DNA of 32,858 nucleotides from Pseudomonadota bacterium (GTDB taxonomy: Bacteria; Myxococcota_A; UBA796; GCA-2862545). Positions 5,056 through 24,113 of this stretch are shown here, piece after piece; the stretch's first letter is position 1; each line of letters opens with the position of its first letter. The stretch covers positions 1 to 32,858 of the forward strand of contig JAGSGY010000062.1 of the NCBI GenBank assembly GCA_023954855.1, written 5' to 3'. The translations under genes and the position numbers were made by a program. The notes under the pieces are model-generated. The model saw only the letters and a list, made by a program, of their open reading frames with translations, searched no databases and was not told the origin of the DNA.

Positions 5056-6438
5056 GTGCACAATGGCTTGCACGGCTACGCCCGTCGCTCTATGGCGCTG
5101 CGCATGACTGCCGAACACAACCATCCCTATCAAGTGCTCGAGATCGTGGCCGCCGGAACCTTCGGCCAGGTCTGCATCGTCCAGGACGTCGCCGACGGCC
5201 GGCCGCTCGCGGTCAAGGTGCTCAAGAAGGAGTTTCTGCGCAATCAGAAGGTGATGGCGCGCACGCGTGATGAGGCGCGGTTGCTCAGCGTGCTCGACCA
5301 CCCGAACCTGCTGAACACGGAGGGCTTCTTCGTGATGGGCGGTCACCCCATCGTCGCGATGGAGTGGGTGCAGGGTATTCCCCTCTCGGACCTGTGCGAT
5401 CCGGAGCGTCCGGTGCCGCCGGCTGCGGTCTCAGCCGAGATCATTCGCCAGTGCTCGCTCGCCCTCGATGCGGCGTACACCACCCCCGCAGGTCCCGAAG
5501 GCGAGCCGCTTCACCTCGTGCACCGCGACATCAAGCCCGGCAACATCCTGATCAGCGTCGACGGCGATGTGAAGGTGGTGGACTTCGGCATCGCCAAGGG
5601 CAACTTCCAGCACAAGGAAGCCGTGACCGTCTCGGTGGTTCTGGGAGCCCGCGACTACAACGCGCCAGAGAGGCTCGACGGCGACGAAGACCAGCCCTCT
5701 CTCGACGTCTACAGCCTCGGCTGCACGCTGTACCGCTTGCTCGGCGGCACCGAAGCCTTCATCTCGATGAACCCGAACCGCCACAGCCCTCGCCTCGAAG
5801 AAGCGAGCGCGGCTCTGGCCCTCGACGGTGTGCGCGGCGCGGCGCGGCTACTTCTGCCCGACCTGCTCCAGCAGATGTGCGCCTATGACCCCACCGAGCG
5901 GCCCAGCCACCGTGAGGTCGTCGAGCGCATCGAGGACATGCAGACGCGCTTTGGACTGGACTGCGACCTTCGCGCCTTCGCGGCTGAGACCGTCGCGCCG
6001 CTGTACCACACCCGCGGATGGGTCCCTCCGACCGAGCACCCCGCCTGGCCCGACGTCGCCTTTCTCGAAGCCGGGCTTCCCGCCGACCACGAACCCCAGG
6101 TTGGAGCAGCAGCGACCACGACCTCAGGCGATGTCGACGCCCGCCTTCGGGTCGCCTTATCGACGCCCGAGTGGCCCTCGCAGGTGCCCGCGATGCGTCG
6201 CCTGCTCGCCGGTCATCCACGCTGGGACCCCACGCCACTGGTGACGCTGCTTCGCGAGGCGAGCGCTCCCGCTTGGCAGCTGTGGAAGAAGCCGCCGCCG
6301 ACGCATAAAGTGGCCGCGGCCCTCGAGCTGCTGCGTGGGCGCAACGACGCCGTCACCGTCGAGGCCGTGCGGGGGCTGATCCGACACAAGAACCCCGAGA
6401 TCGCCGCCAGCGCCCAGGCCCTGCTCGACGCGCTCTAG
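5056..6438 (+). CDS. Ser/Thr protein kinase with unrecognised helical C-terminal region
   Basis: A eukaryotic-type kinase domain spans about residues 24-290. It has the glycine loop AAGTFGQV at 32-39, K54 in AVKVLK, E73, the catalytic HRDIKPGN at 156-163, DFG at 176-178 and APE at 203-205, so all residues needed for phosphotransfer are present. The remaining 170 or so residues match nothing I recognise; the end (ALELLRGRNDAVTVEAVRGLIRHKNPEI) looks like one or two HEAT-like helical pairs that could bind a partner. No membrane segment is visible, so it is probably cytosolic. The start is uncertain: GTG at 5056 sits right after the dioxygenase stop, but ATG codons at 5092 and 5104 are nearer the kinase fold, and none has a clear ribosome site. 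It ends 1 base before the convergent TetR gene. Confidence 0.9.
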   Translation: MHNGLHGYARRSMALRMTAEHNHPYQVLEIVAAGTFGQVCIVQDVADGRPLAVKVLKKEFLRNQKVMARTRDEARLLSVLDHPNLLNTEGFFVMGGHPIVAMEWVQGIPLSDLCDPERPVPPAAVSAEIIRQCSLALDAAYTTPAGPEGEPLHLVHRDIKPGNILISVDGDVKVVDFGIAKGNFQHKEAVTVSVVLGARDYNAPERLDGDEDQPSLDVYSLGCTLYRLLGGTEAFISMNPNRHSPRLEEASAALALDGVRGAARLLLPDLLQQMCAYDPTERPSHREVVERIEDMQTRFGLDCDLRAFAAETVAPLYHTRGWVPPTEHPAWPDVAFLEAGLPADHEPQVGAAATTTSGDVDARLRVALSTPEWPSQVPAMRRLLAGHPRWDPTPLVTLLREASAPAWQLWKKPPPTHKVAAALELLRGRNDAVTVEAVRGLIRHKNPEIAASAQALLDAL

Positions 6439-8462: not shown

Positions 8463-11000
8463 ATGAGTGAGCGCAGCGCCGCCAATCCGCTCTTTCTCGC
8501 CTTCGGGCGCTTCGTCATCGCCGCTCGCGTTCCGCTGATCGCGCTGACGCTGGTGATCACGGCCCTGTTTGCTGGGGCCTCGGCCAAGTACCTCGAGGTG
8601 AACAACACCACCGAGTACTTCGCCGTCGGCAATGCCGAGGTCTCTGACCGTCTCGAGGAGTTCCGCGACGACTTTGGCCGCGACGAGATGTACGCGGTGA
8701 TGATCGAAGGTGACGTCTTCTCTGTGCCCTTCCTCGACAAACTCGAGGTGCTGCACGCCGAGCTCGAAGACTTCGACATGGAGGTCGCAAGCCTCGGTGA
8801 GCGCCGCAAGGACCGCCTCGACTTCGACCCTGCCGTGACCGCAAAGGCGCCCGAGCCCGAGGTCGACGCCTTTGCCGACGACTTTGCCGACTTCGGCGGC
8901 TTCGGCGAAGAGGATGCCTGGGGAGATGAAGCCGGCGGAAGCCTGGTCGAGCAGGTCGTCAGCCTCGTGAACGCCCGCCAGACCGTGCCCACGGGGGACG
9001 GCATCGTCGTGCGCGGATTGCTCGAAGACCCCACCGCGAAAGAGGATCTTCCAGCCCTCAAGAAGCGCGTGCTGGCCGATCGAACCCTCGTCGGCAATCT
9101 CGTCGGAGAGAACGGAACGCACACGGTCATCATGGTGCGCACCGGCTTCATGAACGAGCTCGACAGCGGCCGCGTGGACGGCGCCATCGCAGAGCTGGCC
9201 GAGAAGCATGAGGGTCCCGGATTCAAGGTCACCGTCACCGGCACTCCGCACCTGAACCAGTCGCTGAACAGCATGGTCACCTCGGACATGAAGCGCTTGG
9301 TCGTCGCGGCCGCCATCGTGATGACCTTGCTGCTCATCGCGCTGTTCCGGCATCCCGTCGGCGTCTTCGGCCCGTTCTTCGTCGTGGCCATGGCCTCGAT
9401 CTGGACCCTGGGTGCGATGGCGCTCTACGGCGCTCCGATCACGCTGGTCTCGAACGTCCTCCCGGCCTTCCTCGCCGCGGTCGGTCTCGGCGACTCGATT
9501 CACATCCAGAGCGTGTTTCGAGAGGCCCGCAATCAAGGGCTCTCAGCCCGAGAGTCCGTGCTGGCCGCCATCGGAAGCACGGGCACCCCCGTGGTCTTCA
9601 CAACGATCACGACCATGGCCGGTCTCGCCTCGTTCCGCTTTGCCGGCACCGTCGCCATTCAGGAGATGGGCCTGTTCGGCGCCTTTGGCGTCAGCGTGGC
9701 GATGCTCCACAGCCTGGTGTTCTTGCCCGCGGTGCTGTCCTTCCTCGAGAAGGGAAACCTCGGCGGCGGAGTCGTCGAAGAAGGCGAGCGCAAGCCCGAC
9801 ACCATCGACACCGTGCTCGCCTGGTCGGGCGGCCTGTCGAACACCCCGGCGCGAAGGGTCCGCACCCTCGTCGGCGCCGCCCTGCTGGTCATCATCGCCG
9901 TGGTCGGCATGTCGAAGCTGCGCGTGTACCACAACCCGCTGGTCTGGCTTGGCCCCGAGAGCGAGACCACCATCGGCGTCAACACCATGGACGCCGAGGT
10001 CGGCGGCACCACCACCGTCACATTGCTTCTCGAAGCGGACGGCGAAAACGGACTCAAGGACCGCGACTTCCTGGCCGCCGTCGACGAGCTCACGACCCAC
10101 GCGAGTGAGTGGGTCCACCCCGATTATGGGTCCCCCATCGTCACCTCTTCGACCAGCCTCGCGGACCTCGTCAAAGAGACGAACCGGGCGCTTCACGGCG
10201 GTGATGAGTCCTACTACGTCGTCCCCGAGGACCAGCGCGCAGCCGCCGATGCCCTGCTGTTATTCGAGCAAGCCAGCCCAACGGAGCTCCAGCGCATTGC
10301 CACCGCAGATCTGCGGAAGACGCACCTGACCATGCGGGTCGTATGGCTAGACGCGTCTGGCTACCTGCCGTTCATGGAACACCTCGAGGAAGGCGTTGAC
10401 CGCATCATCGGCGACAAGGCGACCTCTCGCTCGACGGGCTCCATTCTCACGGTCATCACCGTCGTGAACACCATTCTCCACGACCTGATGATGAGCTTTG
10501 GCATGGCCCTTCTCGCAATCACGATGATGATGGTCATCCTGCTCCGCGACGTGCGCCTCGGTCTGGTCGCCATGGTGCCGAACCTCATGCCCATCGTCTT
10601 CATCATGGGTTTCATGGGGTACATGGGCATCACCATCGACCTGACGAACCTGCTGATTGCCTCGATCGTCATCGGCATCGCCGTCGATGACACCATCCAC
10701 TTCCTGTACCAGTTCCAGGCCGGTCACAAGGCCTTCGGCGACGTCGAGAAGGCCATCGACCACGCCATGGAGCACGCAGGCCGCGCGATGGTCAGCACCT
10801 CCATCGTGCTTACGCTCGGCTTCGGCGTCTACATGGCCTCGTCGCTGGTCAGCATGCAGCGCTTCGGCCTTCTGGTCGGATTCACCTGCGTGATGGCCCT
10901 GTTCGTCGACCTGATCATCGCACCCGCACTGCTTCGCACCCTCTACGCCACCTCGTCCCCGGGAGCCGAAAATGCCCACGTTCCGCAGCCTGCCAAGTAA
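8463..11000 (+). CDS. RND/MMPL-family inner-membrane transporter
   Basis: The 845-residue protein shows the duplicated RND architecture: TM1 at about 20-40, a periplasmic domain to about 275, TM2-TM6 at about 278-428, TM7 at about 467-482, a second periplasmic domain to about 655, and TM8-TM12 at about 670-828. Proton-relay-like acidic residues lie in GLGDSIHI (341-348) and GIAVDDTIHF (738-747). Members of this branch (MMPL, HpnN, predicted RND exporters) move lipids or hydrophobic molecules with the proton gradient. An unusual acidic/aromatic stretch, FADFGGFGEEDAWGDEAGG (141-159), sits in the first periplasmic domain. The downstream genes encode a periplasmic LolA-like protein (29-base overlap) and an outer-membrane barrel, so it probably drives transport across the periplasm. 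GGAG is about 11 bases before the ATG. The substrate is unknown. Confidence 0.92.
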   Translation: MSERSAANPLFLAFGRFVIAARVPLIALTLVITALFAGASAKYLEVNNTTEYFAVGNAEVSDRLEEFRDDFGRDEMYAVMIEGDVFSVPFLDKLEVLHAELEDFDMEVASLGERRKDRLDFDPAVTAKAPEPEVDAFADDFADFGGFGEEDAWGDEAGGSLVEQVVSLVNARQTVPTGDGIVVRGLLEDPTAKEDLPALKKRVLADRTLVGNLVGENGTHTVIMVRTGFMNELDSGRVDGAIAELAEKHEGPGFKVTVTGTPHLNQSLNSMVTSDMKRLVVAAAIVMTLLLIALFRHPVGVFGPFFVVAMASIWTLGAMALYGAPITLVSNVLPAFLAAVGLGDSIHIQSVFREARNQGLSARESVLAAIGSTGTPVVFTTITTMAGLASFRFAGTVAIQEMGLFGAFGVSVAMLHSLVFLPAVLSFLEKGNLGGGVVEEGERKPDTIDTVLAWSGGLSNTPARRVRTLVGAALLVIIAVVGMSKLRVYHNPLVWLGPESETTIGVNTMDAEVGGTTTVTLLLEADGENGLKDRDFLAAVDELTTHASEWVHPDYGSPIVTSSTSLADLVKETNRALHGGDESYYVVPEDQRAAADALLLFEQASPTELQRIATADLRKTHLTMRVVWLDASGYLPFMEHLEEGVDRIIGDKATSRSTGSILTVITVVNTILHDLMMSFGMALLAITMMMVILLRDVRLGLVAMVPNLMPIVFIMGFMGYMGITIDLTNLLIASIVIGIAVDDTIHFLYQFQAGHKAFGDVEKAIDHAMEHAGRAMVSTSIVLTLGFGVYMASSLVSMQRFGLLVGFTCVMALFVDLIIAPALLRTLYATSSPGAENAHVPQPAK

Positions 11001-11793
11001 GGTCCTGCTCGCAAGCCTGCTCTGGGCGAGCACCCTCGCCTCGGCTGTCGAGCCGACCGAGACCGACCCGAACGTCATCATGGACGCAGTCACGGCGCAG
11101 GACACCGGCGACAAGCAGAAGTCGCGCGTGCACATCACGATTATCGACAAGGCCGGCCGCGAGCGCACGCGCTCCATCGTCACCCGCGCCATGGACTTCG
11201 ATGGCGGCAGCAAGCAGCTGATGCTCTTCGAGGGCCCGGCCGACGTGCGCAACGCTGGCCTGCTGTCGATCAACCACGACGATGCCTCGAAGAACGATGA
11301 CCAGTGGCTCTACCTGCCGAGCTTGGCGAAGACCTCGCGCATCAGCGGCGCAGACCGCTCCGGCTCGTTCATGGGCACCGACCTGACCTACGCAGACATG
11401 GGTGACCGCGACACCGAGAACTACGACTACACCTTGGTTCAGGGCTCGGCGACCGTGGACGGCGACGACTGCTGGGTCATCGAGTCGCGGCCGAACGCCG
11501 ATGAAGCCTCGGAGACTGGCTACGTGAAGTCACACACCTGGATCAGCAAGAGCAAGCTGATTCCGGTACAAGTCAAGGCATGGGTCCTCGAAGGCAAGAA
11601 GCTGAAGTACACGAAGTTCGGCGAAATCCAGCAGATCAACGGCATCTGGGTTCCGCACCGCATCGTCGTGCGCACGGTCAAGGGCACTGAAGTGCAGTCG
11701 ACCTCGACCCTCGTGTTCTCAGAGATCGCCTTCGACCAGGAAGATGTCGTGTCCAGCGACTTCACCGAACGCCGCCTCGAGCAGGGCCTGTGA
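10972..11793 (+). CDS. Periplasmic LolA-like outer membrane lipoprotein-sorting family protein
   Basis: The 273-residue precursor begins with a signal peptide (MPTFRSLPSKVLLASLLWASTLASA, cleavage near A25). The mature part has the pattern of the LolA_like family (Pfam PF17131): SRVHITIIDKAGRERTRSIVTRAM, then QLMLFEGPADVRNAGLLS, then DDQWLYLPSLAKTSRISG and SGSFMGTDLTYADM. This fold is an open beta-barrel with a hydrophobic cavity that carries a lipid or lipoprotein through the periplasm, and members are often found beside RND genes. The ATG overlaps the RND gene by 29 bases with GGAG 6 bases upstream, and the stop overlaps the next start by 4 bases, so the three are probably made as one unit. 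It probably hands a hydrophobic substrate between the RND pump and the barrel protein. Confidence 0.9.
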   Translation: MPTFRSLPSKVLLASLLWASTLASAVEPTETDPNVIMDAVTAQDTGDKQKSRVHITIIDKAGRERTRSIVTRAMDFDGGSKQLMLFEGPADVRNAGLLSINHDDASKNDDQWLYLPSLAKTSRISGADRSGSFMGTDLTYADMGDRDTENYDYTLVQGSATVDGDDCWVIESRPNADEASETGYVKSHTWISKSKLIPVQVKAWVLEGKKLKYTKFGEIQQINGIWVPHRIVVRTVKGTEVQSTSTLVFSEIAFDQEDVVSSDFTERRLEQGL

Positions 11794-13685
11794 GTCCACT
11801 CCTCCTCGTACTGGCGAGCTTGGCCCCCGTGTGGGCCGAGACGCCGGTCGTGGAGGAACCCGCCTCGCCCGTCTGGACGGAGGATGCCGGCGAGGCCTCT
11901 TCGTCGGTCGAGGACTCACCCTGGCAGACCGCGGGCCCCTGGGACGTGCCGACCCTCATCGAAGGCCCGCCCACCCCACTTCGCAGCCCGATCAACATCG
12001 CACCTTGGTGGCTGCGCGAGCCGCCAAACCCGTGGGGAGTGGCTGCCGGCACTGCTGCGCCAGCCGAAGTCACCCCATGGACCGGCTCGGCGCCCACACC
12101 CGAGCCCGGCTGGGAGCAGGCCGCCGGCGCTGACGAAGCCGGTTGGGGAGACAGCCCAGCCGCCGATACCGCTGACGAAGCAGGCTGGGGCGACGCAGCC
12201 GATGAAGCCGGTTGGGGCGACGAAGCCGACGATGCCGGCTGGGGCGATGCCGGCGACACCGCTGGCTTTGGCGACGCCCCGCCCACGACGCCCGCCAAGA
12301 GTCGCAATCCGATGTTCACCTTCGGCGGTGCCCTCGAGACCCGCGAGTCTCTGTGGATGGAGCGCCTTGGCGAGACCCCACTGGCCTCGGCCAAGCAGTC
12401 TGTCGACCTCGAGGCACGCTTCAAGAAGGGCATCTTCCGGGGCAAAGCCGCCGTGCACGCCGAGGCCGACCTGGCCTACTGGTTCCCCCAGGACCGGTGG
12501 GACGGCATCATGGAGGACAAGCCGACCTTCCGCACCTACGGGCGCCAGCTCCTTCCGCGCGAAGTCTGGCTCTCCGCCTCTCCCGGCGACTTCGAGTTCA
12601 GCGCCGGGCGCCAGAAGGTGGCCTGGGGCGAGGGACTGCTGCTCTCGCCGATGGACGTCATCTCGCCGCGCGACATGCGCGAGCCGGGACTCGCCGACCT
12701 CGAGGACCTGCGCCTTCCGGTCACCATGGTCCGCGCCGGCTGGTATCCGGGCTCGCACCGCTTCGAGCTGTACTACGTCCCCGAGTTCGACATCGGCTTT
12801 CGCAGCCCGCCACAGGGCCCCTACGGCGGCATGACCGCGCTGGTGGACCAGGCCCCCGACATCAATCCGAGCGACCTCTTCGAAGACCCGACCGGCGGAC
12901 TGCTCGGCGGCCTCATCGACTACTTCTTCGGCGACGAGTTCGACGAGCAGGTCGAGACGCTGCTCACCGACAAGGCCTACACCTACGAGCACCAGCAGCC
13001 CCGTTGGAAGGCCTCACAGGCCCAAGTCTTCGGACGGTGGCGGTACAGCGGAAACGGCATCGACGTGGCGCTGTACGGCGGCACGCTCATCGACAAGCAA
13101 GGCGCGTTCAGCTTTCCCGAGCTTCAGACTTTCATCGACGAAGACGTGATTCGGCTCAAGGTCGACCACTACCGCTACAGCTCGTTTGGTCATTCCGGCG
13201 CCGCCCCCATCGACAAGCTGCTGTTGCGGTGGGAGCTCGCGGTCGACTTGAACAAGCCGTACAACACGGCCGACTGGGACGTCGCACCACCTGAATTGAG
13301 CGTAGGCCGCGGCGACCTAGCCACCGGCATGGTGGGTGTGGGCATGAACTACATCCCGAACACCACCGTGGACTTCGAGGTCAGCCAGGGCGTGTTCCTC
13401 AAGAACCCCGGCGAGCTCATCACCCCTGCAGACACCACCAACTGGGGCCTTCGGGTCGGTTGGACGGGCATGCGCGAACGGCTGCGCCTAGGCGCCACTG
13501 GCCTCGCCTTTGGAACCGATGGCCGCTACGGGTCGCTCGCTCGCCTCGACGCCTCTTACGCCCTGCGCGACGGCCTCTGGGCCACGGTGGGCGGAATCAC
13601 GTACCAGCCAGGTCGCGAGAACGGCCCGCTGATCGGACTCGACACCCACGACCAGCTGTTCGGTCAGCTTCGATGGTCGTTCTAG
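11790..13685 (+). CDS. Outer-membrane beta-barrel protein (DUF1302-like) with DEAGWGD repeat linker
   Basis: The 631-residue precursor starts at a GTG whose last three bases with the next A form the GTGA overlap with the previous stop. A short signal peptide (MSPLLLVLASLAPVWA) is followed by about 150 residues of acidic, Pro/Trp-rich linker. The linker includes a first copy of DEAGWGD (115-121) and then four 9-residue units (129-164). From about residue 175 alternating-hydrophobicity strands begin (FTFGGALETRESLW) and continue to the C-terminal FGQLRWSF, which ends in Phe as many outer-membrane barrels do. GRQKVAWGEGLLLSPMDVISPRDMREP (273-299) resembles the GRQ-x-x-WGE motif of DUF1302 and related porin-like proteins, which co-occur with RND genes in proteobacterial lipid and steroid clusters. 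It is probably the outer-membrane end of the export cassette. Family identity is moderate; the barrel assignment is strong. Confidence 0.82.
   Translation: MSPLLLVLASLAPVWAETPVVEEPASPVWTEDAGEASSSVEDSPWQTAGPWDVPTLIEGPPTPLRSPINIAPWWLREPPNPWGVAAGTAAPAEVTPWTGSAPTPEPGWEQAAGADEAGWGDSPAADTADEAGWGDAADEAGWGDEADDAGWGDAGDTAGFGDAPPTTPAKSRNPMFTFGGALETRESLWMERLGETPLASAKQSVDLEARFKKGIFRGKAAVHAEADLAYWFPQDRWDGIMEDKPTFRTYGRQLLPREVWLSASPGDFEFSAGRQKVAWGEGLLLSPMDVISPRDMREPGLADLEDLRLPVTMVRAGWYPGSHRFELYYVPEFDIGFRSPPQGPYGGMTALVDQAPDINPSDLFEDPTGGLLGGLIDYFFGDEFDEQVETLLTDKAYTYEHQQPRWKASQAQVFGRWRYSGNGIDVALYGGTLIDKQGAFSFPELQTFIDEDVIRLKVDHYRYSSFGHSGAAPIDKLLLRWELAVDLNKPYNTADWDVAPPELSVGRGDLATGMVGVGMNYIPNTTVDFEVSQGVFLKNPGELITPADTTNWGLRVGWTGMRERLRLGATGLAFGTDGRYGSLARLDASYALRDGLWATVGGITYQPGRENGPLIGLDTHDQLFGQLRWSF
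12132..12275 (+). repeat. 27-bp tandem repeats encoding DEAGWGDxA units
   Basis: Four contiguous 27-bp units starting at 12174 encode DEAGWGDAA, DEAGWGDEA, DDAGWGDAG and DTAGFGDAP. They are preceded by a further DEAGWGD copy at 12132 separated by seven residues. They lie in the periplasmic linker of the outer-membrane protein, between the signal peptide and the barrel. Confidence 0.85.
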
Positions 13686-13689: not shown

Positions 13690-13741
13690 GTCGCGGTAGC
13701 ATCGCTCGGTAGGAGGTCGCCTGGAGACACAGGTCCCCGAC

Positions 13742-16700
13742 TTGATCGAGCGACTCGGCCGCGGCGCGATGGGCGAGGTGTGGCGGGGAGCTCTGGGCGG
13801 GCACCCGGTGGCGGTGAAGCGACTGCACCCCGAGCTCTCACGCAGACCCGAGCGGCGCGAGGCCTTCCTTCACGAAGTGCGCGCAGTGGCCCGCCTGCAC
13901 CACCCGGCACTGATCGCGGTCTACGACTACGGCATCGATGAGGGCGTGCCATGGATGGCGATGGAGTTGGCCAGCCAGGGAACGCTGGCCGCGCACCCGC
14001 CCGAGAGCTTCGCCGAGCTGCGCGAGCGGCTCCTCGTCACGCTGGACGCACTCGCTCACGCCCACGCCCACGACCTCACTCACCGCGACCTCAAGCCGAG
14101 CAACTTGCTGATCTGCGGCCACACGGATGCCCGCCCAGGGCTCAAGCTCGCCGACTTCGGTATCGCCCAGGCACTGGGTGCGGAGGACGCGCTCGCGCAC
14201 TCCGGCACGCCCCTGTACATGGCCCCCGAGCAGGTTCTCGGAGCCTGGCGGCAGGTGGGACCCTGGACGGATCTCTACGCTCTCGGATGCCTGGGCTTTC
14301 AGTTCGCAACAGGCTCCGCACCGTTTCGAGGCACGAGCGGCGAGCTGAGACGCGCGCATCTGAGCGCACCCGTGCCGAGGCTCCGGCCCCACTTTCCGGT
14401 CCCTGCCGGATACGAACCGTGGCTCAGGCGCCTCCTGATGAAGGCCCCCGCCGAGCGCTATCGATGCGCTGCCGATGCGGCGTGGGCACTCCGCCGCTTG
14501 GAGCACGCTGAAGCCGGACACGCCCAGCCCTCATGGCCCCTCGACGCGCCCACGCTCACCCACTTCGACGGCTCGGCCGTACTCGACGGGACGACGCTCG
14601 TCGGCACGCCGGACGCCGAGACAGAAGCCATGGCCATCGAGCGCGCACCATGGCCCTTGCAGGCTCCGCCCACCCTTCCCGTCACCGCCCATCGAGGCCT
14701 GGGCCTAGGCGTTGCCTCTCTGCGCGAAGTGCCGTTGGTGGGTCGCCAGCGCGAGACCTCCAAGCTGTGGGAACGGCTTTCCGAGGCACTCGAGGCCGAG
14801 GACACCAGGGTGGTCGTACTTCATGGGCCGCCAGACATCGGAAAGACCCGGCTGGCCCAATGGCTGGTGCGACAGGTGCGCGCGTGTGGTGGCGTCGGCT
14901 TGTTCGTCGATGCATCCGGGGTGGACCCGGTGGCTGAAGCCCTTCGCACCGCACTCCACAGTGATGGACTCAGCGACGATGCGCTCAGCGCACACCTCAA
15001 GGAGCGCACAGGCTCGGCGGGACTGGCCACGACGCTGACGCAAGACACCCGGAAGGTCGGAGAGATGTGGTCCGCACTGCGCGCCTGGGCCGAGGAACGC
15101 CCCCTCGTCATCGCGCTCGACCCCATCAGCCCCGATGCGATCGAGCTCGCGCGAGCCGCAACGGGCCACGGCGCCATCCTCCTCCTCACCGCGCGCGACA
15201 ACGACCTGGATGCCGCGCGACGTGAGGCGCTTGCCCACGCCTCGTTCATCCCCGTCGGCCCACTCGACGAACGCGACTGGACCGCACTTGCCGACGCCCA
15301 GATTGGCGTCTCCCACGCGCTGTCTGGTCGGCTTGCAGTGCTTTCCGAGGGGATCCCAGGCGTCGCGGAACGGTGGGTCTCCTCGTGGGTGGAGAACCAG
15401 CGCCTGCGCTCCGGAGACGGAGGACTGGAGCTCGACGAGACTGCCCTGCGCGCCGCAGCAGAACCGTCCAACTACTGGCTCCATCGAGTGCGGGCAGCGC
15501 TACAGGACCCTACCGACCAGCAGGAGGCTCTCGAGATTGCGGCGGCGCTGGGCGTACGGGTCGACCGTGAGCGCTGGCATGCTCTGATCGGTGGCACTCC
15601 CGAGGGGCTCGAGGGCGGGCTGGCGTCACGAGGGCTCATCCGACCGACCGGCACCGGCTTCGCGTTCGTACACCCCGGCATCACCGACGCCCTTCGACAC
15701 CTCGCGGGAGAGCGCTGGGCCACGCACCAAGCAAGCTGTGCCGCGACCGCAACCGACGACGAGAGCAAGGGCCGGCACTGGCTCGCAGCCCAGCAGCCTC
15801 GACAAGCCATCGCCCCGCTGCTGAGAGCCGCCCACCAACGGCATCTCCGCGGCCAGTTTCGCCGCGCGCGCGACTTGTACCAGGAGCGAACCGACGCGAT
15901 GCAGAGCGTCGGCATCGACGAGGACGACCCTCGTTGGGCCGATGGGTGGAACAAAGAGGCCATCACCTGGCGCATGCTCGGCGACTTCGACCGCTGCGTG
16001 GAGCTTGGAGGAGCCGTCGAGGCCCTGGGTAGGCGCATCGGCGAACCGTCGCTAATCGGAGACGGCCTAATCACGCAAGGCGTGGCGTTCGGCAACAGCG
16101 GCAAGCTCGCCGAGGGCCTCACCTGCCTCGACGCGGCCATCGGGCATCTCGAGGGTCGACCCGGCCGCCAGAGGGCTCACGTCGTGCGCGCCGGCATCCG
16201 CATCCTCGCCCGGCAGCTCGACGGGGCCGAAGCTGACTTGCAGACGGCGCTATCTGGCGAGCTCGCTCCCTACCTCAGGGCCGAGGCGCTGCGGCACCTT
16301 GGGGGCATCGGCTTTCTACGCGGCAACCCCGCCGACTTCGAAGCGCGCCTGACCGAAGCCATCGCTATCTACGAAGCCACGGGCGACCGTTGGGGCCAGG
16401 CCGTATCGGTCGGCGACCTGGGCGTCGTGGCGCACGTGCGCGGAGACCTCGACAAGGCCGAACAGTTCTACCGCCGTGCCATGGAGCTCTGGCAAGAAGT
16501 CGGCGGTCGAGACCAACTCATTGCGCAGAACAACCTCGCGATGGTGCAGGCCGCCACAGGGCGCTTTGCAGAAGCACTCCAGGGCTCAGCCTGGGTGGAG
16601 GCCCAGGCCAACAAGGTACAACTGACGCGGATCGTCGCTCCGAGCCACGCGGTTCAGCTGGTCGCGAGCGCTGGGCTCGGCGATGGCGCCAGCTTCGACG

Positions 16701-16861
16701 CCACGCTCGAGCGAACGAGGGCGCTCACCTCACCGAGTGTGGATGAAGACCTGCCACAGCTGGCCAAGGACGCCGCGGACCATTGGGACAAGCACGGCGA
16801 TCAGGCGCGGACACAAGCGGCGCTCGCACAGGCCGCGCACTGGGCGGCAGCGCTGGGGTAG
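13742..16861 (+). CDS. Ser/Thr protein kinase fused to AAA/STAND-like ATPase and TPR region
   Basis: This 1039-residue multidomain regulator has three parts. Residues 1-255 are a complete kinase domain: GRGAMGEV loop at 6-13, K26 in VAVKR, E45, HRDLKPSN at 114-121, DFG at 138-140, APE at 161-163. About residues 330-640 form a STAND/AAA-type ATPase beginning LVGRQRE (332-338), with Walker A GPPDIGKT at 362-369 and a Walker B-like LVIALDP. About 680-1039 are TPR-like helical repeats (LYQERTDAMQSVGI, LGVVAHVRGDLDKAEQFYRRAMEL). Such fusions are frequent in Myxococcota and probably sense a partner through the TPRs. The start is TTG at 13742; an in-frame CTG at 13721 lies 4 bases after GGAGG and would add seven residues (LETQVPD). 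The FHA-winged-helix gene follows 18 bases after the stop and is a likely target. No membrane segment. Confidence 0.9.
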   Translation: MIERLGRGAMGEVWRGALGGHPVAVKRLHPELSRRPERREAFLHEVRAVARLHHPALIAVYDYGIDEGVPWMAMELASQGTLAAHPPESFAELRERLLVTLDALAHAHAHDLTHRDLKPSNLLICGHTDARPGLKLADFGIAQALGAEDALAHSGTPLYMAPEQVLGAWRQVGPWTDLYALGCLGFQFATGSAPFRGTSGELRRAHLSAPVPRLRPHFPVPAGYEPWLRRLLMKAPAERYRCAADAAWALRRLEHAEAGHAQPSWPLDAPTLTHFDGSAVLDGTTLVGTPDAETEAMAIERAPWPLQAPPTLPVTAHRGLGLGVASLREVPLVGRQRETSKLWERLSEALEAEDTRVVVLHGPPDIGKTRLAQWLVRQVRACGGVGLFVDASGVDPVAEALRTALHSDGLSDDALSAHLKERTGSAGLATTLTQDTRKVGEMWSALRAWAEERPLVIALDPISPDAIELARAATGHGAILLLTARDNDLDAARREALAHASFIPVGPLDERDWTALADAQIGVSHALSGRLAVLSEGIPGVAERWVSSWVENQRLRSGDGGLELDETALRAAAEPSNYWLHRVRAALQDPTDQQEALEIAAALGVRVDRERWHALIGGTPEGLEGGLASRGLIRPTGTGFAFVHPGITDALRHLAGERWATHQASCAATATDDESKGRHWLAAQQPRQAIAPLLRAAHQRHLRGQFRRARDLYQERTDAMQSVGIDEDDPRWADGWNKEAITWRMLGDFDRCVELGGAVEALGRRIGEPSLIGDGLITQGVAFGNSGKLAEGLTCLDAAIGHLEGRPGRQRAHVVRAGIRILARQLDGAEADLQTALSGELAPYLRAEALRHLGGIGFLRGNPADFEARLTEAIAIYEATGDRWGQAVSVGDLGVVAHVRGDLDKAEQFYRRAMELWQEVGGRDQLIAQNNLAMVQAATGRFAEALQGSAWVEAQANKVQLTRIVAPSHAVQLVASAGLGDGASFDATLERTRALTSPSVDEDLPQLAKDAADHWDKHGDQARTQAALAQAAHWAAALG

Positions 16862-16879
16862 CGTGGCCCTGGAGCGCCC

Positions 16880-17842
16880 GTGTTCGAACTGCAGATCCAC
16901 AAGGACGGCGCTGTCGTCCACCGCCACTCCATTGGCCCACAGCCGAGTCACATCGGCAGGGCTCGGACCAACGACCTTGTGCTCGCCAGCCCACGGGTCT
17001 CTTCCCAGCACCTCATCGTGTGGACAGACGCCGACACGGTGTGGTTCGAGGACGTGGGAAGCCGCAACGGCACGACCCTCAACGGGGACACGCTCACCGG
17101 CCGAAAAGCGGCGACCACCGGTGCAGTGCTCGTGCTCGGCGATGCCGTCGAGCTCCACTTGGTGGGCACCGCCCCAGCCCATGACGATGCCCTCCCGTCT
17201 CTCTTCGTCGAAGACACCGCCAGCGGCGTGCAGATCGCCGTTCGTGCGCAGCGCGCCCACTTCGGCTCCGGCATCGATGCGGACATTCGCCTACAGGAAG
17301 GGCCGGCCCGGGCCGCCACCCTCATCGTTCACAGCCACGAAGTCTGGCTCGGCACCGACGAGGGAGAGCGCGAGCTGGTCATCGGAGAGCCCTTCGACGT
17401 CTGCGGCCGCGTCTACGTGCTTCGGGCAGACACGGGGGCCGCAACAAAGACCGAGGCCCTGGACGAGGCCCGCTACCCCTACGACCTCGCGGTGAGCCTC
17501 GAAGGTGCGAGTGGGCCGTCGGCCACGCTCACCCACCGCCGCACCCGTGCGGTTCACGTCGTCCGCTCCGAGGTCCGTGTGACCCTGCTCTACGTGCTCG
17601 CCCGGACGCTTGCCGCGCACGTTGACGAGGGTGCTGCGGCCGAAGTCCGAGGCTGGATACACGACGACGATGTGGCCAGCGGTCTGTGGGGACGCGAGCG
17701 GTTCAAGCTCGAGCCGAACAACCTGCACGTGCTCGTCCACCGTCTCCGCAAAGAAGTCGAAGCGGCTGGCTTCGACCCGTGGTTCATCGAGAAAAAGCGC
17801 CGCCACCTGCGACTCAGGTTGGACGGCGCTGTGGTGGAGTAG
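16880..17842 (+). CDS. FHA-domain protein with C-terminal winged-helix DNA-binding domain
   Basis: The 320-residue protein starts at a GTG with GGAG 5 bases upstream. Residues 1-98 are an FHA domain with the phosphothreonine-binding residues G26-R27, S42, H44 and the SRNGT loop (61-65). Residues about 108-183 look like a second, degenerate FHA fold (HFGSGIDADIRL, then ELVIGEPFDVCGRVYVL) that lacks the SRNGT loop. Residues about 222-316 resemble an OmpR-type winged helix: RSEVRVTLLYVLARTL, an LWGRE turn, then NNLHVLVHRLRKEVEAAGF as recognition helix and a C-terminal hairpin. This suggests a transcription factor switched by binding a phosphorylated partner. The immediately upstream kinase is the obvious candidate. 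Known comparison: EmbR of mycobacteria (winged helix, BTAD, FHA) is controlled by PknH; here the order is reversed and the BTAD is absent. Confidence 0.87.
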   Translation: MFELQIHKDGAVVHRHSIGPQPSHIGRARTNDLVLASPRVSSQHLIVWTDADTVWFEDVGSRNGTTLNGDTLTGRKAATTGAVLVLGDAVELHLVGTAPAHDDALPSLFVEDTASGVQIAVRAQRAHFGSGIDADIRLQEGPARAATLIVHSHEVWLGTDEGERELVIGEPFDVCGRVYVLRADTGAATKTEALDEARYPYDLAVSLEGASGPSATLTHRRTRAVHVVRSEVRVTLLYVLARTLAAHVDEGAAAEVRGWIHDDDVASGLWGRERFKLEPNNLHVLVHRLRKEVEAAGFDPWFIEKKRRHLRLRLDGAVVE

Positions 17843-17917: not shown

Positions 17918-18943
17918 TCACTTCAGGCTGCCGACCTTGGCGGTGCCGTAGCGGCTCGAGAGCGGCGAGAACACAGGGAACTCCATGCCCATGCGGACCA
18001 TCGGCCCGAGACCCGGCTCGATGCCAAGGCCGAGGTGAAACGGCGTGTCCATGCGGCCGAGCCCAGCCGACCGGTTCAGGCGCAGCTCACCGCCCCAGTG
18101 GCGGAAGTTGCTGAAGTTCTCGGACTCCGAGTTCTGCGGCGTGTACAGGACGACGAGCTCGAGGCCATGCTGCCCCCGGATCATTCGGCGCTCACCGTGG
18201 TGTTCCTGAATCTCGCGCCAGGTCGTGAGGAAGGAAACACCACCCGCGAAGGCCAAGTATCCCGGCGCGACCTTGTCATCTGCGAGGTCGGGACCTCGTC
18301 CCACGAGACTGCGCAGCCCGCCGTAGACGATCAGGTTGCGCTGGGCGGTAACGGTGGTGTCGATGTACTTGTAGGTGGTCGTGGTCGTGCGCATGTCCGA
18401 GCTCGAGCTCTGCGAGAGATTGAACTTCGCATCCCGCTGCTTGTGCCCGCGGATCAGGCTGAAGCCCACGTTGCCGTAGAGCTGGCCGAAGGTGCGGGGG
18501 CCGTTGTCGCGGAGGGTGACCCCGAGCGCGGCTCCAGAGTCGATGTAGAGGCCCGACGCGGCCACGAGCTGGTAGCGGGGCCCGAAGGCCGCAAGCGTAT
18601 GGCTGCTGGTGACGTCCAGCGCCAGGCCGAGCATGTCCCAGTCCTTGCGCTTGAACCTCCCCGGCGCTGCGGACTCACCGGCGTCACTTGGCGTGGCGGC
18701 CGAAGTGGGCTCCACCGCTGGCTCGATTGGGGCGGGCTCGGCGGGGGGCTCCGCTACGGCCTCCGTCGGCGAGGCCTCGGTCGGCGAGGGGGCCGGCGCG
18801 ACCCCATCCTCTTCGGGCTCCTCTGGCGTGGTGGCCTCGACCGGGGGCACTTCGGCACCCGAAGCCTCCGGATCTGGCGCGTCCTGGGCAAGAGCAGGTG
18901 CAGTGAGTGAGAGGGCGAGAACGGCTGAAACGAAACGGACCAT
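17918..18943 (-). CDS. Putative outer-membrane beta-barrel protein with Pro/Glu/Ala-rich linker
   Basis: The product is 341 residues from the ATG at 18941-18943, which has GGAGG 5 bases upstream; an earlier in-frame start would only add eight residues. It begins with a signal peptide (MVRFVSAVLALSLTAPALAQ) followed by about 75 residues rich in Pro, Glu and Ala (PTEASPTEAVAEPPAEPAP), probably an extended linker in the periplasm or cell wall. From about residue 95 alternating polar/hydrophobic strands (DMLGLALDVTSSHTLAAFGPRYQL, GLYIDSGAALGVTL, GQLYGNVGFSLI) suggest a barrel of roughly ten strands. I recognise no named family. It lies downstream of the Lnb-like gene on the same strand, separated by 98 bp containing an inverted repeat. 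Confidence 0.75.
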   Translation of the reverse strand: MVRFVSAVLALSLTAPALAQDAPDPEASGAEVPPVEATTPEEPEEDGVAPAPSPTEASPTEAVAEPPAEPAPIEPAVEPTSAATPSDAGESAAPGRFKRKDWDMLGLALDVTSSHTLAAFGPRYQLVAASGLYIDSGAALGVTLRDNGPRTFGQLYGNVGFSLIRGHKQRDAKFNLSQSSSSDMRTTTTTYKYIDTTVTAQRNLIVYGGLRSLVGRGPDLADDKVAPGYLAFAGGVSFLTTWREIQEHHGERRMIRGQHGLELVVLYTPQNSESENFSNFRHWGGELRLNRSAGLGRMDTPFHLGLGIEPGLGPMVRMGMEFPVFSPLSSRYGTAKVGSLK

Positions 18944-18996
18944 GAGGACCTCCAGGTGGCTGTTCACAACCTAGGAATCCCCCGCCCTGAAAGACT

Positions 18997-19914: not shown

Positions 19915-22900
19915 CTACGCGCCGTAGCGCCGCCGCCGCACGAACAGCGGCAGCAGCACAAGACCGAGCCCGGCCGTTCCCTGAACGCTTCGACAGCCGC
20001 AGTCTTCGGGGTCTAGACCGGTGTCTGCGGTATCGGCCGTGTCGACGAGGTCGCTACCGCAGTAGTTGTCGTCGTTGTCGGGATCGATGAAGTCCGGCAG
20101 GCCATCGCAGTCGACGTCGGTGTCGAGCTCGGATGCATCGTCGACGCCGTCGCCGTCTGCGTCGAGGTCGAGGTGGTTGGGCTCGCCGTCCCCATCGATG
20201 TCAAACGACCCCTCGACGATGGTGGGAATGCCATCGTTGTCGTCGTCGGCGTCGTAGAAGTCGACGAGCGCGTCACCGTCGGTGTTCACCGGCTCGAAGA
20301 GCTCCGCCTGGTCGCAGTGCACCGTCGCGGTGTACGCATCCCAGTCGAGCTCGTGTCCGTACTCGACACCGTCGGGCACGCGGTCGAAGTCGCTGTCGCG
20401 AAGCTGCGGGTCCGAGCCGAGGGCTTCTTCGACGGCGGTCGGCAGGCCATCGCCATCGGGGTCACCGCACGGGCCATCGTGGTGAAGCGGGTCGAGGTAG
20501 TCGACGAGGCCGTCCCAGTCCGTGTCATCGGTGTGGGGGTCTCCGTCGCCGTTGTAGTCCTCGTCGGCGGTGTGAATGCCGTCGCCATCGTCGTCGGTGT
20601 CGTGGTGGTTCGGCCGCGTGTCCCCGTCTTGGTCCGGCAGCATGGGCGGGGCCGGGAGCGGCGGAAGCGGCGGGCAACCGACGCCCACGCAGCGGTTCTG
20701 CGCGTCCGCGACCGAGATCTCGTCAATCGTCAGCGCGGTGTCGTTGTCGTCATCGGTGTCGCAGACATCCATGATGCCGTCGTTGTCGCTGTCGCGGAGC
20801 GCACCGAGCTGACCGAACTCCGCACCGTCGTGGATGCCGTCAAAGTCGCTGTCAGGCGTGCCCTCACCCAGGCACTCGAACCCGGGACAGGCCAGGCCGG
20901 CGCCCAGCTCGACGCGGTCTCCTGAGATGGGGTTCCACTCGGCGGCACAGGGTCGCTCATGCCGGTTGAGGATGCCATCCCCATCGCGGTCCGCGTCGGG
21001 TCCGTCGAGGGTGTCGCAGTCGGCGTAGTCGGGCTGGAAGTCGTTGTCGCTGTCGGTCAGCCCCTCGTCACGATCGAGAAGGCCATCGCCATCGGTGTCG
21101 ACATCGACGTAAGGCGGGCGACCATCATCAGGGCCCTGGCACTCCACGAACCAGTCGCCCTCGGTGAAGGTCGGAATGCCGTCGCCGTCGTCATCTTCGT
21201 CGAGTGGGTCGGGAATGAGGTCGAGGTCGGTGTCGCGTGGGGGTCCGTTCAGGTTCAAGCCCCACTCGACGACGTCGGGAATCGAGTCGAAGTCCGCATC
21301 GGTCGTGTACTGCGTGCCCACCGGGTACTCCCAGAGGGTCGGCACGCCATCGCCGTCGTCGTCGGGGTCGAGGTAGTCCGGAGTGTTGTCGTTGTCGGTG
21401 TCATCGTCGAAGAGTGCGTCTCCGTCGCGGTCTTCGTCGGCGGTGGGAATGCCGTCGCCGTCGTCATCGGGGTCGAGGTAGTCGGGGATCTGGTCGCGGT
21501 CGCTGTCCTCGTCGTCGGGTCCGGCGCCGGTGTAGACCTCGTTGGCCGTTGCGATGCCATCGCCGTCGTCGTCGGCGTCGAGCACGTCGGGAATGGTGTC
21601 GTTGTCGCTGTCGCCGCGGGTGAACTCAATCACATCGCCGATGCCGTCACCATCGGAGTCGTCGCTGCAGCCGTCGGTTCCCAGGTTGAACTCGTCGATC
21701 CAGTTGACGCCGTCGCCATCGAGGTCGCCGAGCGGGCCGTCGTCAATGGGATTGCAGTTGTCATCAACGCCGTTGCAGGGAAGATCGACCTGCCCCGGGT
21801 AGATCTCTTCGTCGGCGTCGTTGCAGTCGGTGTTGTCGGCCACGAAGCCAGGCGGCTGCACGCACGCGCGACGCATGCCGTTCGGGTCGCCGAATTCGTC
21901 CAGATCGACATCCGGATACCAGGGGTCGCCACCCGGGTCGATGTTCTGCACCGTGTCGTCGCAGTCCTGGCTGTTGCGAACCCAGGTTCCCGGAAGGGTG
22001 GGAATCAGACAGCTGCGCTCTTCGGTCCCAAAGTCGCCCCAGCCATCACCATCGGCGTCTAGGTACCAAGGGGTCTCAGGATTCAGGTCCGGATCGGAGT
22101 CGTTGCAGTCGTCGTTGTTGAGCGACCAGCCACGTCCCGGCGCTTCACAGCTTGCGGTCGCGAGCCCAGCGCCAGCACCATCACCGTCGTTGTCCGCGTA
22201 CCAGGAGGCCCCGGGAAACTTCAGCGGGTCGTTGTCGTCGCAGTCACCATCCCGTGGGACGAAATCCGCCCCGGGTGCGTCACAGGCGGGCGTCGAGCTT
22301 CCGGCTCCATAGGTGTCACCGTCGTTGTCAAACCACCACGGGGTCTGCCCAATTGCGCCAGGATCGACATCATCCGCGGCCCCGTTGCAGTCTTCGTCCA
22401 CATCGAGTGCATCACACAGCTCCGTGGCGTTCGGATGCACCGTGGTGTCGGTGGGCGCACAGTCGGCGATGGCGGTAGGCGCGACAAAGCCTGGAGGCTG
22501 CGTACAGGCCTCGACAGCACCTGCAAGCACGCCGGTGCCGTCATTGTCAGTGTCGGGCCACCAGGTGCTCGGCCCGAGAATGTTTGCGTTGGTGTCGTCG
22601 CAGTCCCCGTCGACCGGTGACCACTTCGGCCCGGGATCGGTACAGGTGCCGAGCGCCTGCGCAGAGCCAAAGCCAAGGCCGTCTTCATCGTTGTCGGCGT
22701 AGAAGTCACTGAGCACGTCGCTGTCGGCATCATCGATGTCGTCGTCGCAGTCGTTGTCGATGCCGTCGCAGATCTCCTGCTCGGCCGGCGAGGCCAGCGC
22801 GTCGCCGTCGTTGCAGTCGGTGGCGTTGGTCACATCGCCGTAGCTCTCGACGCAGAGCAGGCCCGAGTCGTTCTCGTCGCCGTACCCGTCGCCGTCTGCA

Positions 22901-24033
22901 TCGGCGTAGTAGGTCTCGCCGTCGCAGTAAGTGATGAGGTGGGTGCCCGCGCTATTGTCGATCCAGCTCGCGAACTCGAGCTTGGCCCAGTCCCCATTGC
23001 GCTCGGTGGACGAGATGCGCACGTCGTCGATGAGGCCGTCAAAGTACTCGCGGTCGCCACCGGGAATGCGGCCGACGTACCAGACTGAGGTCGTCTTGTT
23101 CGTGGTCGCCGCGCCGGTGACATCACCTTGCAGGACGCCATCGATGTACATGCGAAGCCGGCCCTCGGACTTGTCGCGCGTCATGAACGCGTGGTGCCAG
23201 TACCAGTTGTTCACCGCCGAGGTGCTCTCGATGACGTCGGTGCCGGGCCCACTGACGCGAAACGCCCACTTGCCGCTCGAGGTCACGTAGCCGTAGAAGA
23301 CGTCGTTCGAGCCACTGCGCTCGATGCCGAGGATGCCTGGGCAGTCCCAATAGTTGCTGCGCCCGGACTGGTCGGTGGCAAACCAGTAGCTGACCGTGGC
23401 CTCTTCAGACTCGCCGAGGACGGTGTTCGCGTCCCAAGCGCCGTCGCCCGTGCCGCCCCAGTAGTCGCCATTGCCGTCGAGCACACCGTAGAAGCCGCGC
23501 GTCCAGCCCTGGACGTAGGTATTGCCAGACGCGTTCTTGCTGCGACCTCGCCCGGTGCTGTCGGTCAGCGTCGAGGTCTCACCCACATGCCACACCGCCT
23601 CGAAGCTCGAGTCCCAGACCGACGAGCCATTGGTCGGCGTGCTCGCGTTGGAATTGCCGTAGTACATCCAGATGTCGACGGTGCTGTTGGGCGCAATCGA
23701 GGGGATCTTCACGTGAATCGAGGCGCGGTCCAAGGACGTGTTGAAGCGCTCGATCTCGTGGGGCAACAGCGTGCCGTTACTGTCGACGAAGCGAAGGTCC
23801 GAGCCGTCGTCGTTCATCAGATCGAAGTCGGCCCGCTGGTACTGGACGTCGGAGGAGACGTAGGCCAGGCGCACCATGACCGGGAAATCGGTGACGGTGC
23901 CCGAGAGCCCGCGACCGTTGCTGTCGATGGTGAGCTTCTGCCGATGCTGCCAATCCGGATTCCACCAGTCGGACTGGGGAGCGGCATGAGCAGACGAACC
24001 GACCACCATGAGGAGTAGAAGTGCGGACCGCAT
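19915..24033 (-). CDS. Giant secreted DUF2341/LamG/MopE/thrombospondin-type-3 repeat protein with MYXO-CTERM-like tail
   Basis: The product is 1372 residues from the ATG at 24031-24033, with GAGG about 8 bases upstream. It begins with a signal peptide ([17 protein letters not shown]). A DUF2341-type domain spans about 20-135 ([22 protein letters not shown]). A LamG/concanavalin-like sheet domain spans about 145-346, ending LIDDVRISS. MopE-type metal-binding repeats follow (DCDD or DCND...[10 protein letters not shown], about 370-810), then thrombospondin-type-3 repeats ([15 protein letters not shown], about 810-1335). The C-terminus is CGC, a hydrophobic stretch [13 protein letters not shown], then VRRRRYGA, matching the Cys-helix-Arg layout of MYXO-CTERM sorting signals. 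The protein should be exported, calcium-rich and attached to the outer surface. A role in adhesion or surface structure is inferred. Its repeats resemble those of the protein at 1-2550, but the domain order differs. Confidence 0.9.
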
Positions 24034-24113
24034 TTTTGGTGCCTCTGTTCCTATAGTATAGCGACGAGCCCGGGCACCTACCCCCGAAAGCGAAGCCAAG
24101 GCGGCGAATCCAC
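24034..24113. promoter_or_regulatory. Divergent promoter region with TATACT -10 candidate
   Basis: In this 80-bp gap, CTATAGTATA (24051-24060) is a rare AT-rich element. Read on the minus strand it gives TATACT at 24055-24060, a good -10 box for the giant repeat gene, with transcription predicted to start about 15 bases before its ATG. No clear -35 box is visible at the correct distance. Confidence 0.45.

What the first reader, a model, noticed from the sequence alone, without database searches (positions are those of the whole stretch)
13721..17842. Kinase-ATPase-TPR protein paired with a tandem-FHA winged-helix protein: a possible one-operon phospho-switch
An intact Ser/Thr kinase fused to a Walker-A ATPase and TPRs is followed after 18 bases by a protein with a phosphothreonine-binding FHA domain and a C-terminal winged helix. 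FHA domains bind phosphothreonine, and EmbR/PknH is a precedent for kinase control of an FHA transcription factor. Here the domain order is reversed (FHA first, DNA binding last) and there is no BTAD. The direct kinase-to-regulator link is inferred from adjacency.
Basis: partly seen in the sequence, partly recalled or inferred. Interest (0 to 1): 0.65.

Follow-up and report, generated by a model that had tools for sequence, protein, structure and literature searches.

The report
Kinase-linked FHA transcription regulator pair
Beside a protein kinase gene lies a gene for a probable DNA-binding regulator that can recognise phosphorylated threonine; it belongs to a family found almost only in one order of (probably myxobacterial) bacteria, where it repeatedly sits next to different kinases, which suggests a kinase-to-gene switch that works like a two-component system but with phosphothreonine.

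Summary
A Hanks-type kinase with AAA_16 and TPR regions (13721-16861, probably CTG start) is followed after 18 bases by an FHA protein (16880-17842). AlphaFold2 and fold search confirm a C-terminal OmpR/PhoB-type winged helix (about 121 residues, not 95). FHA1 keeps its phosphothreonine-binding residues; FHA2 is degenerate. The protein belongs to a family ("FHW") nearly confined to one order. FHW genes adjoin a kinase gene in 28 of 67 loci and in 6 of 9 held-out loci; kinase density within 500 bp is about 20 times background. Partners vary: mostly apparent membrane kinases; the NTPase-TPR partner seen here is kept only in the other genome of the genus. New here: a Thr (Thr191) conserved in 61 of 67 members within an otherwise variable, disordered linker before the winged helix, a candidate phosphoacceptor. 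This kinase and its orthologue lack the Thr-x-Thr activation loop of most other partners, so docking of the FHA there is unlikely. FHA-first regulators are already known (EspM, M. xanthus FHA activators), so domain order alone is not new. Phosphorylation and DNA binding are inferred. New variant of a known kind.

The parts
13711..13716 (+). AGGAGG, probable Shine-Dalgarno of the kinase gene
   Evidence: read directly
13721..16861 (+). Ser/Thr kinase - AAA_16 - TPR protein; CTG start at 13721 likely (listed ORF starts at TTG 13742)
   Evidence: start supported by the Shine-Dalgarno and by the length of the ATG-started orthologue
13742..14506 (+). Hanks-type kinase domain; HRD and DFG present; activation loop DFGIAQALGAEDALAHSGTPLYMAPE without Thr-x-Thr
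   Evidence: Pfam Pkinase 1.5e-34; nearest solved relatives PknA and PknB; loops compared
14732..15127 (+). AAA_16 (STAND-like NTPase) domain; Walker A GPPDIGKT at 14825-14848
   Evidence: Pfam 34.7 bits, cut-off 32.6
16415..16582 (+). TPR repeats (best stretch)
   Evidence: Pfam TPR_12 1e-14
16862..16879 (+). 18-base spacer with GGAG (16871-16874) before GTG
16880..17842 (+). FHW regulator, 320 aa: FHA1 - degenerate FHA2 - linker - winged helix
16880..17179 (+). FHA1, residues 1-100; pThr pocket residues R27, S41, H44, N63 present in 66 or 67 of 67 homologues
   Evidence: VIA-align Z 16.5-17.6 to FHA domains of FhaA, CT664 and EmbR
17186..17434 (+). degenerate FHA2, residues 103-185
   Evidence: AF2 beta strands; hhalign to FHA1 E 1.5e-4, probability 51%
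17450..17452 (+). codon of Thr191, near-invariant Thr in the disordered linker; candidate phosphoacceptor
   Evidence: 61 of 67 sequences; neighbours variable; residues 189-196 pLDDT under 50
17477..17839 (+). OmpR/PhoB-type winged helix, residues 200-320
   Evidence: AF2 pLDDT 94.6; top rows are OmpR/PhoB-type DNA-binding domains, Z 7.4-10.3; profile match to SaeR

Best explanation
The FHA protein is a transcription regulator of a lineage-specific family (FHW) that serves as the output of Ser/Thr kinases, in the role of a response regulator. Most likely the adjacent kinase, when its own input (here an NTPase-TPR module, elsewhere an apparent membrane-tethered domain) switches it on, phosphorylates the conserved linker Thr (Thr191) of the FHW protein; FHA1 then binds this phosphothreonine, in cis or in a partner subunit, which rearranges or dimerises the OmpR/PhoB-type winged helices on DNA. 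Shown here: domain anatomy, conservation of the FHA pocket and of the linker Thr, the winged-helix fold (predicted), and non-random kinase adjacency. Inferred: phosphorylation, the site, FHA binding, DNA binding and the direction of the effect.
For: FHA1 pThr-binding residues kept in essentially all members (R27 67/67, S41 66/67, N63 66/67). Winged helix supported by model and fold comparison. 35 kinase genes within 500 bp of 67 FHW genes (0.54/kb, 25 on the same strand) against 0.01-0.08/kb further out and 0.023/kb genome-wide; 28 of 67 loci, 21 of 51 clusters at 55% identity; 6 of 9 held-out loci. The pair is kept in the sister genome although the upstream genes differ. Thr191 in 61 of 67 while adjacent linker columns reach at most about 45-55%.
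Against: 39 of 67 FHW genes have no adjacent kinase in the stretch read (some are cut by contig ends). Thr191 is conserved there too, so it does not point to a particular kinase. No phosphorylation, binding or DNA-binding data exist. Thr191 could have a structural reason not seen in the model. Relative placement of the domains is uncertain (pTM 0.51).
Confidence: 0.5

Rival explanations
1. EmbR/PknH-like docking: FHA1 binds an autophosphorylated Thr of the kinase, which brings the regulator in to be phosphorylated elsewhere; Thr191 is incidental or only the substrate.
For: Precedent in EmbR/PknH (PMC4601284). Most other partner kinases have a Thr-x-Thr activation loop (TRTGVAMGS and similar). 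The kinase-NTPase linker has a TLT in both orthologues.
Against: The kinases of this pair and its orthologue lack the Thr-x-Thr loop, so here the docking site would have to lie in the linker or further on.
Confidence: 0.25
2. The FHW protein is a transcription regulator that answers to pThr signals from several of the cell's many kinases, and adjacency in this window reflects only co-expression.
For: 140 kinase matches in the genome; over half of FHW genes have no adjacent kinase; presence of an adjacent kinase changes at least 12 times on the tree.
Against: Adjacency is about 20-fold over background and mostly same-strand; the pair is kept between two genomes whose FHW proteins share about 52% identity.
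Confidence: 0.2
3. The FHW protein is a phospho-dependent scaffold, not a DNA-binding regulator; the winged helix serves protein contacts.
For: Winged helices can act in protein contacts (general knowledge); no DNA-binding data.
Against: Helix 3 and wing keep basic residues in nearly all members (R288 65/67, R290 67/67, K or R at 305-306 in most), and the matching folds are DNA-binding domains of response regulators, CadC, ToxR, AfsR and EmbR.
Confidence: 0.05

Closest known systems
EmbR / PknH of Mycobacterium tuberculosis
   Same: OmpR-type winged helix and FHA in one regulator controlled by a Ser/Thr kinase (PMC4601284); the family profile matches the EmbR FHA domain best in the PDB (E 1e-18), and the winged helix also aligns to EmbR (Z 7.4, rmsd 3.3, 103 residues)
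   Different: Order is FHA-FHA-winged helix; no BTAD; a second degenerate FHA; conserved linker Thr; the kinase carries NTPase and TPR regions
EspM of mycobacteria
   Same: N-terminal FHA and C-terminal DNA-binding half that binds the whiB6 promoter (PMC7002343, PMC11005418)
   Different: EspM is described with two HTH domains and a helical bundle, not an OmpR-type winged helix; no partner kinase described there
M. xanthus FHA enhancer-binding proteins
   Same: FHA domain in transcription regulators of a myxobacterium (Jelsbak 2005, cited in PMC12288465; the paper itself is not held)
   Different: Those are sigma-54 activators with an AAA+ domain (own knowledge); none here
PknK / VirS of M. 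tuberculosis
   Same: A kinase with a long non-kinase region that phosphorylates a transcription regulator (PMC9045387, PMC4601284; architecture from own knowledge)
   Different: VirS is an AraC-type regulator without FHA
Two-component systems of the OmpR/PhoB class
   Same: Same DNA-binding fold; kinase and regulator genes adjacent; apparent membrane sensor kinase in many FHW loci
   Different: Hanks kinase and FHA replace histidine kinase and receiver

Membership tests
FHA domain, pThr-binding type | GR, SxxH and NG motifs of the pThr pocket | tested here: met
   R27 67/67, S41 66/67, H44 66/67, N63 66/67, G64 67/67; Pfam E 3.9e-12
FHA domain, pThr-binding type | binds a phosphothreonine peptide | not testable with these tools
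   needs biochemistry
OmpR/PhoB-type winged helix | N-terminal beta strands, three helices, C-terminal hairpin | tested here: met
   AF2 model pLDDT 94.6; Z 7.4-10.3 to OmpR/PhoB-type domains
OmpR/PhoB-type winged helix | specific DNA binding | not testable with these tools
   Pfam Trans_reg_C reaches 20.1 bits, under the cut-off of 26.2, so a divergent member at best; DNA binding needs an experiment
EmbR (SARP) family | winged helix, then BTAD, then FHA | tested here: not met
   order reversed and no BTAD match up to E 1
Response regulator of a two-component system | receiver domain with phospho-Asp | tested here: not met
   no receiver match; FHA domains instead
Sigma-54 FHA enhancer-binding protein | AAA+ sigma-54 interaction domain | tested here: not met
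   no such match in the 320-aa protein
Hanks-type Ser/Thr kinase | Gly loop, VAVK, HRD, DFG, APE | tested here: met
PknB-like activation by Thr-x-Thr loop | two Thr in the activation loop | tested here: not met
   ALGAEDALAHSGTPLYMAPE here, RLLGGEAHGGTLRYSAPE in the orthologue; the loop is usual, not obligatory, for Hanks kinases
STAND-type NTPase | Walker A and acidic Walker B | tested here: inconclusive
   Walker A intact here, Walker B weak, Walker A lysine lost in the orthologue

The most novel reading that the evidence does not exclude
FHW proteins are the response-regulator half of a lineage-specific phosphothreonine 'two-component' system: exchangeable Hanks kinases with membrane or NTPase-TPR inputs phosphorylate a conserved linker Thr, and FHA-pThr exchange between subunits drives dimerisation of PhoB-type winged helices, in place of the phospho-Asp receiver.
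Probability: 0.3. Interest if true: 0.75.

Novelty: new variant of a known kind. Interest (0 to 1): 0.52.

Why it matters
Genomes of this group carry a hundred or more Hanks kinases, and few such kinases are tied to a defined output. A family of FHA winged-helix regulators that repeatedly sits beside kinases gives named kinase-regulator pairs, a precise residue to mutate (Thr191), and a way to ask whether phosphothreonine and FHA can stand in for phospho-Asp and receiver in one-operon signalling.

Tried and rejected
The exporter operon upstream (MMPL 8463-11000, LolA-like 10972-11793, DUF1302 11790-13685) was considered as part of the system: same strand and close, but not kept in the sister genome, where a transporter gene of another kind (permease-like, my reading of the ORF) lies upstream of the kinase, so it is left out. 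A shared Thr motif in the kinase-NTPase linker was looked for; TLT is present in both orthologues but not in the FHW-adjacent AAA_16-like kinase of G013, inconclusive. Fold search of the whole regulator is filled by FHA1; FHA2 was not predicted and searched alone for want of prediction jobs. Foldseek alone gave no E under 0.001 for the winged helix; the second look by VIA-align gave a clear set. The C-terminal domain of the membrane-type partner kinases (A3) has no Pfam match; it is enriched in, but not exclusive to, FHW partners. No plasmid or PHROGs relatives of the FHW protein. Literature searches found no description of this FHA-FHA-winged helix family; subscription papers are not held. 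One literature call was malformed, one paper was not held.

Full report
The two genes. On the + strand a kinase gene ends at 16861 and the FHA gene starts with GTG at 16880, 18 bases on. The kinase protein has an intact Hanks domain (Pfam E 1.5e-34; nearest solved relatives PknA and PknB), an AAA_16 domain just over the curated cut-off and TPRs. The listed start TTG 13742 cuts the first beta strand; CTG 13721 follows AGGAGG by 4 nt and gives about the length of the ATG-started orthologue MERAGIFTLDERLDAGAMGEV in the sister genome. No sigma-70-like promoter was found in the region, and no terminator-like site lies between the two genes.

The regulator. The 320-residue protein has a canonical FHA domain (1-100), a degenerate FHA-like domain (103-185), a linker and a C-terminal domain (200-320). 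AlphaFold2 with 41 homologues gives pLDDT 92, with residues 189-196 under 50 and an uncertain arrangement of domains (pTM 0.51). The C-terminal part alone gives pLDDT 94.6 with strands, three helices and a hairpin in the order of OmpR/PhoB DNA-binding domains. In VIA-align the first 24 rows are all such domains: GlnR Z 10.3 (rmsd 2.5, 93 aligned), ArlR 10.1, SaeR 10.0, PhoB with DNA 9.5, CadC 9.1, AfsR 8.2, EmbR 7.4 (rmsd 3.3, 103 aligned); differences under 1 are ties. Foldseek by itself was weak. By profile the C-terminal domain matches SaeR at E 1.8e-4. The relation of FHA2 to FHA1 rests on hhalign E 1.5e-4 with probability 51% and on the strand pattern.

The family. Full-length homologues (called FHW here) occur in most of the 38 relatives searched, often several per genome, three or four in the window's own. 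In 282 genomes of the phylum 38 have a match at E 1e-25: 33 of the same order (own genome included), 3 of the same class, 2 more distant with partial matches. A pattern scan of one genome for each of 84,980 species gave 35 loci, all from metagenome-assembled genomes, mostly titled Deltaproteobacteria, proteobacterium or Myxococcota. The FHA pocket residues are kept in essentially all 67 distinct members.

Kinase adjacency. Kinases are common here, 140 matches in 6.1 Mb, so adjacency needs a control. Within 500 bp of 67 FHW genes lie 35 kinase genes (0.54 per kb, 25 on the same strand); from 500 bp to 6 kb the density is 0.01-0.08 per kb, and the genome mean is 0.023. 28 of 67 loci have such a neighbour, or 21 of 51 clusters at 55% identity, with at least 12 changes of state on the tree. 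Nine loci not used before include 6 with an adjacent kinase. So the link to kinases is real and recurrent, though fewer than half of FHW genes show it.

The partner varies. Most partners are kinases of about 470-615 residues with a hydrophobic segment after the kinase domain and a C-terminal domain of about 90 residues that Pfam does not know; the transmembrane reading is by eye from the sequence, no predictor was run. This domain was also found near FHW genes in loci not used to build its profile (G024, G022, G031, G020), but also in kinases without an FHW neighbour. The kinase of the window is of another kind: its kinase domain is closest to other kinase-NTPase-TPR proteins, of which this genome has several. 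The pair is kept in the one other genome held for the genus, together with the convergent gene at 17918-18967, while the upstream genes differ. A second FHW gene next to a kinase with an AAA_16-like region, in G013, lies elsewhere in the FHW tree, so such partners were probably acquired more than once.

How it may work. The membrane-type partner kinases have a Thr-x-Thr activation loop, a usual FHA docking site in mycobacteria (own knowledge). The kinase here and its orthologue lack it. In the regulators one linker residue, Thr191, is kept in 61 of 67 members while its neighbours vary, in a stretch predicted with very low confidence, hence probably disordered. That pattern is typical of a modification site (inference). 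The simplest reading is that the kinase phosphorylates this Thr and that FHA1 reads it, in cis or between subunits, as the FHA domains of GarA/OdhI and of Bdellovibrio DgcB read their own tails (entry titles; mechanism from own knowledge). PhoB-type domains act as dimers (own knowledge), so an FHA-pThr exchange dimer would do what the receiver does in a response regulator. This last step is speculation.

What is known. EmbR/PknH is the closest functional precedent (PMC4601284). FHA-first regulators exist (EspM, PMC7002343 and PMC11005418; M. xanthus FHA activators, cited in PMC12288465). PknK phosphorylates VirS (PMC9045387). I found no description of the FHA-FHA-winged helix family or of its kinase pairing, in an open-licence library only.

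Verdict. Real, more than chance, and informative as a family. The principle (kinase to FHA regulator) is known; the architecture, the lineage-wide pairing with exchangeable kinases and the conserved linker Thr are what is new.

Noticed in passing
window 8463-13685 (+): MMPL exporter, LolA-like and DUF1302 genes overlap or nearly touch each other and end 35 bases before the kinase gene; possibly one transcript with it, but the order is not kept in the sister genome.
   Followed up: partly
window 17918-18967 (-): Convergent gene without Pfam match, kept next to the pair in the sister genome.
   Followed up: partly
window 5056-6438 (+): A second Ser/Thr kinase-like ORF about 10 kb upstream of the pair.
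   Followed up: no
window 19915-24099 (-): 1394-residue probable surface protein with DUF2341, laminin-G-like and MopE metal-binding motifs and many Asp-rich repeats.
   Followed up: no
L111 and L053: FHW genes flanked by two kinase genes on the opposite strand; one of the kinases ends in a sequence that looks like a response-regulator receiver domain.
   Followed up: no
L102, L103, L098: Records titled Bifidobacterium breve, Klebsiella pneumoniae and Rhodobacterales hold genes of this family; these MAG labels look wrong.
   Followed up: no
L096:8260-8589 and relatives (alignment A3): C-terminal domain of about 90 residues, unknown to Pfam, on membrane-type kinases, enriched next to FHW genes.
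   Followed up: partly
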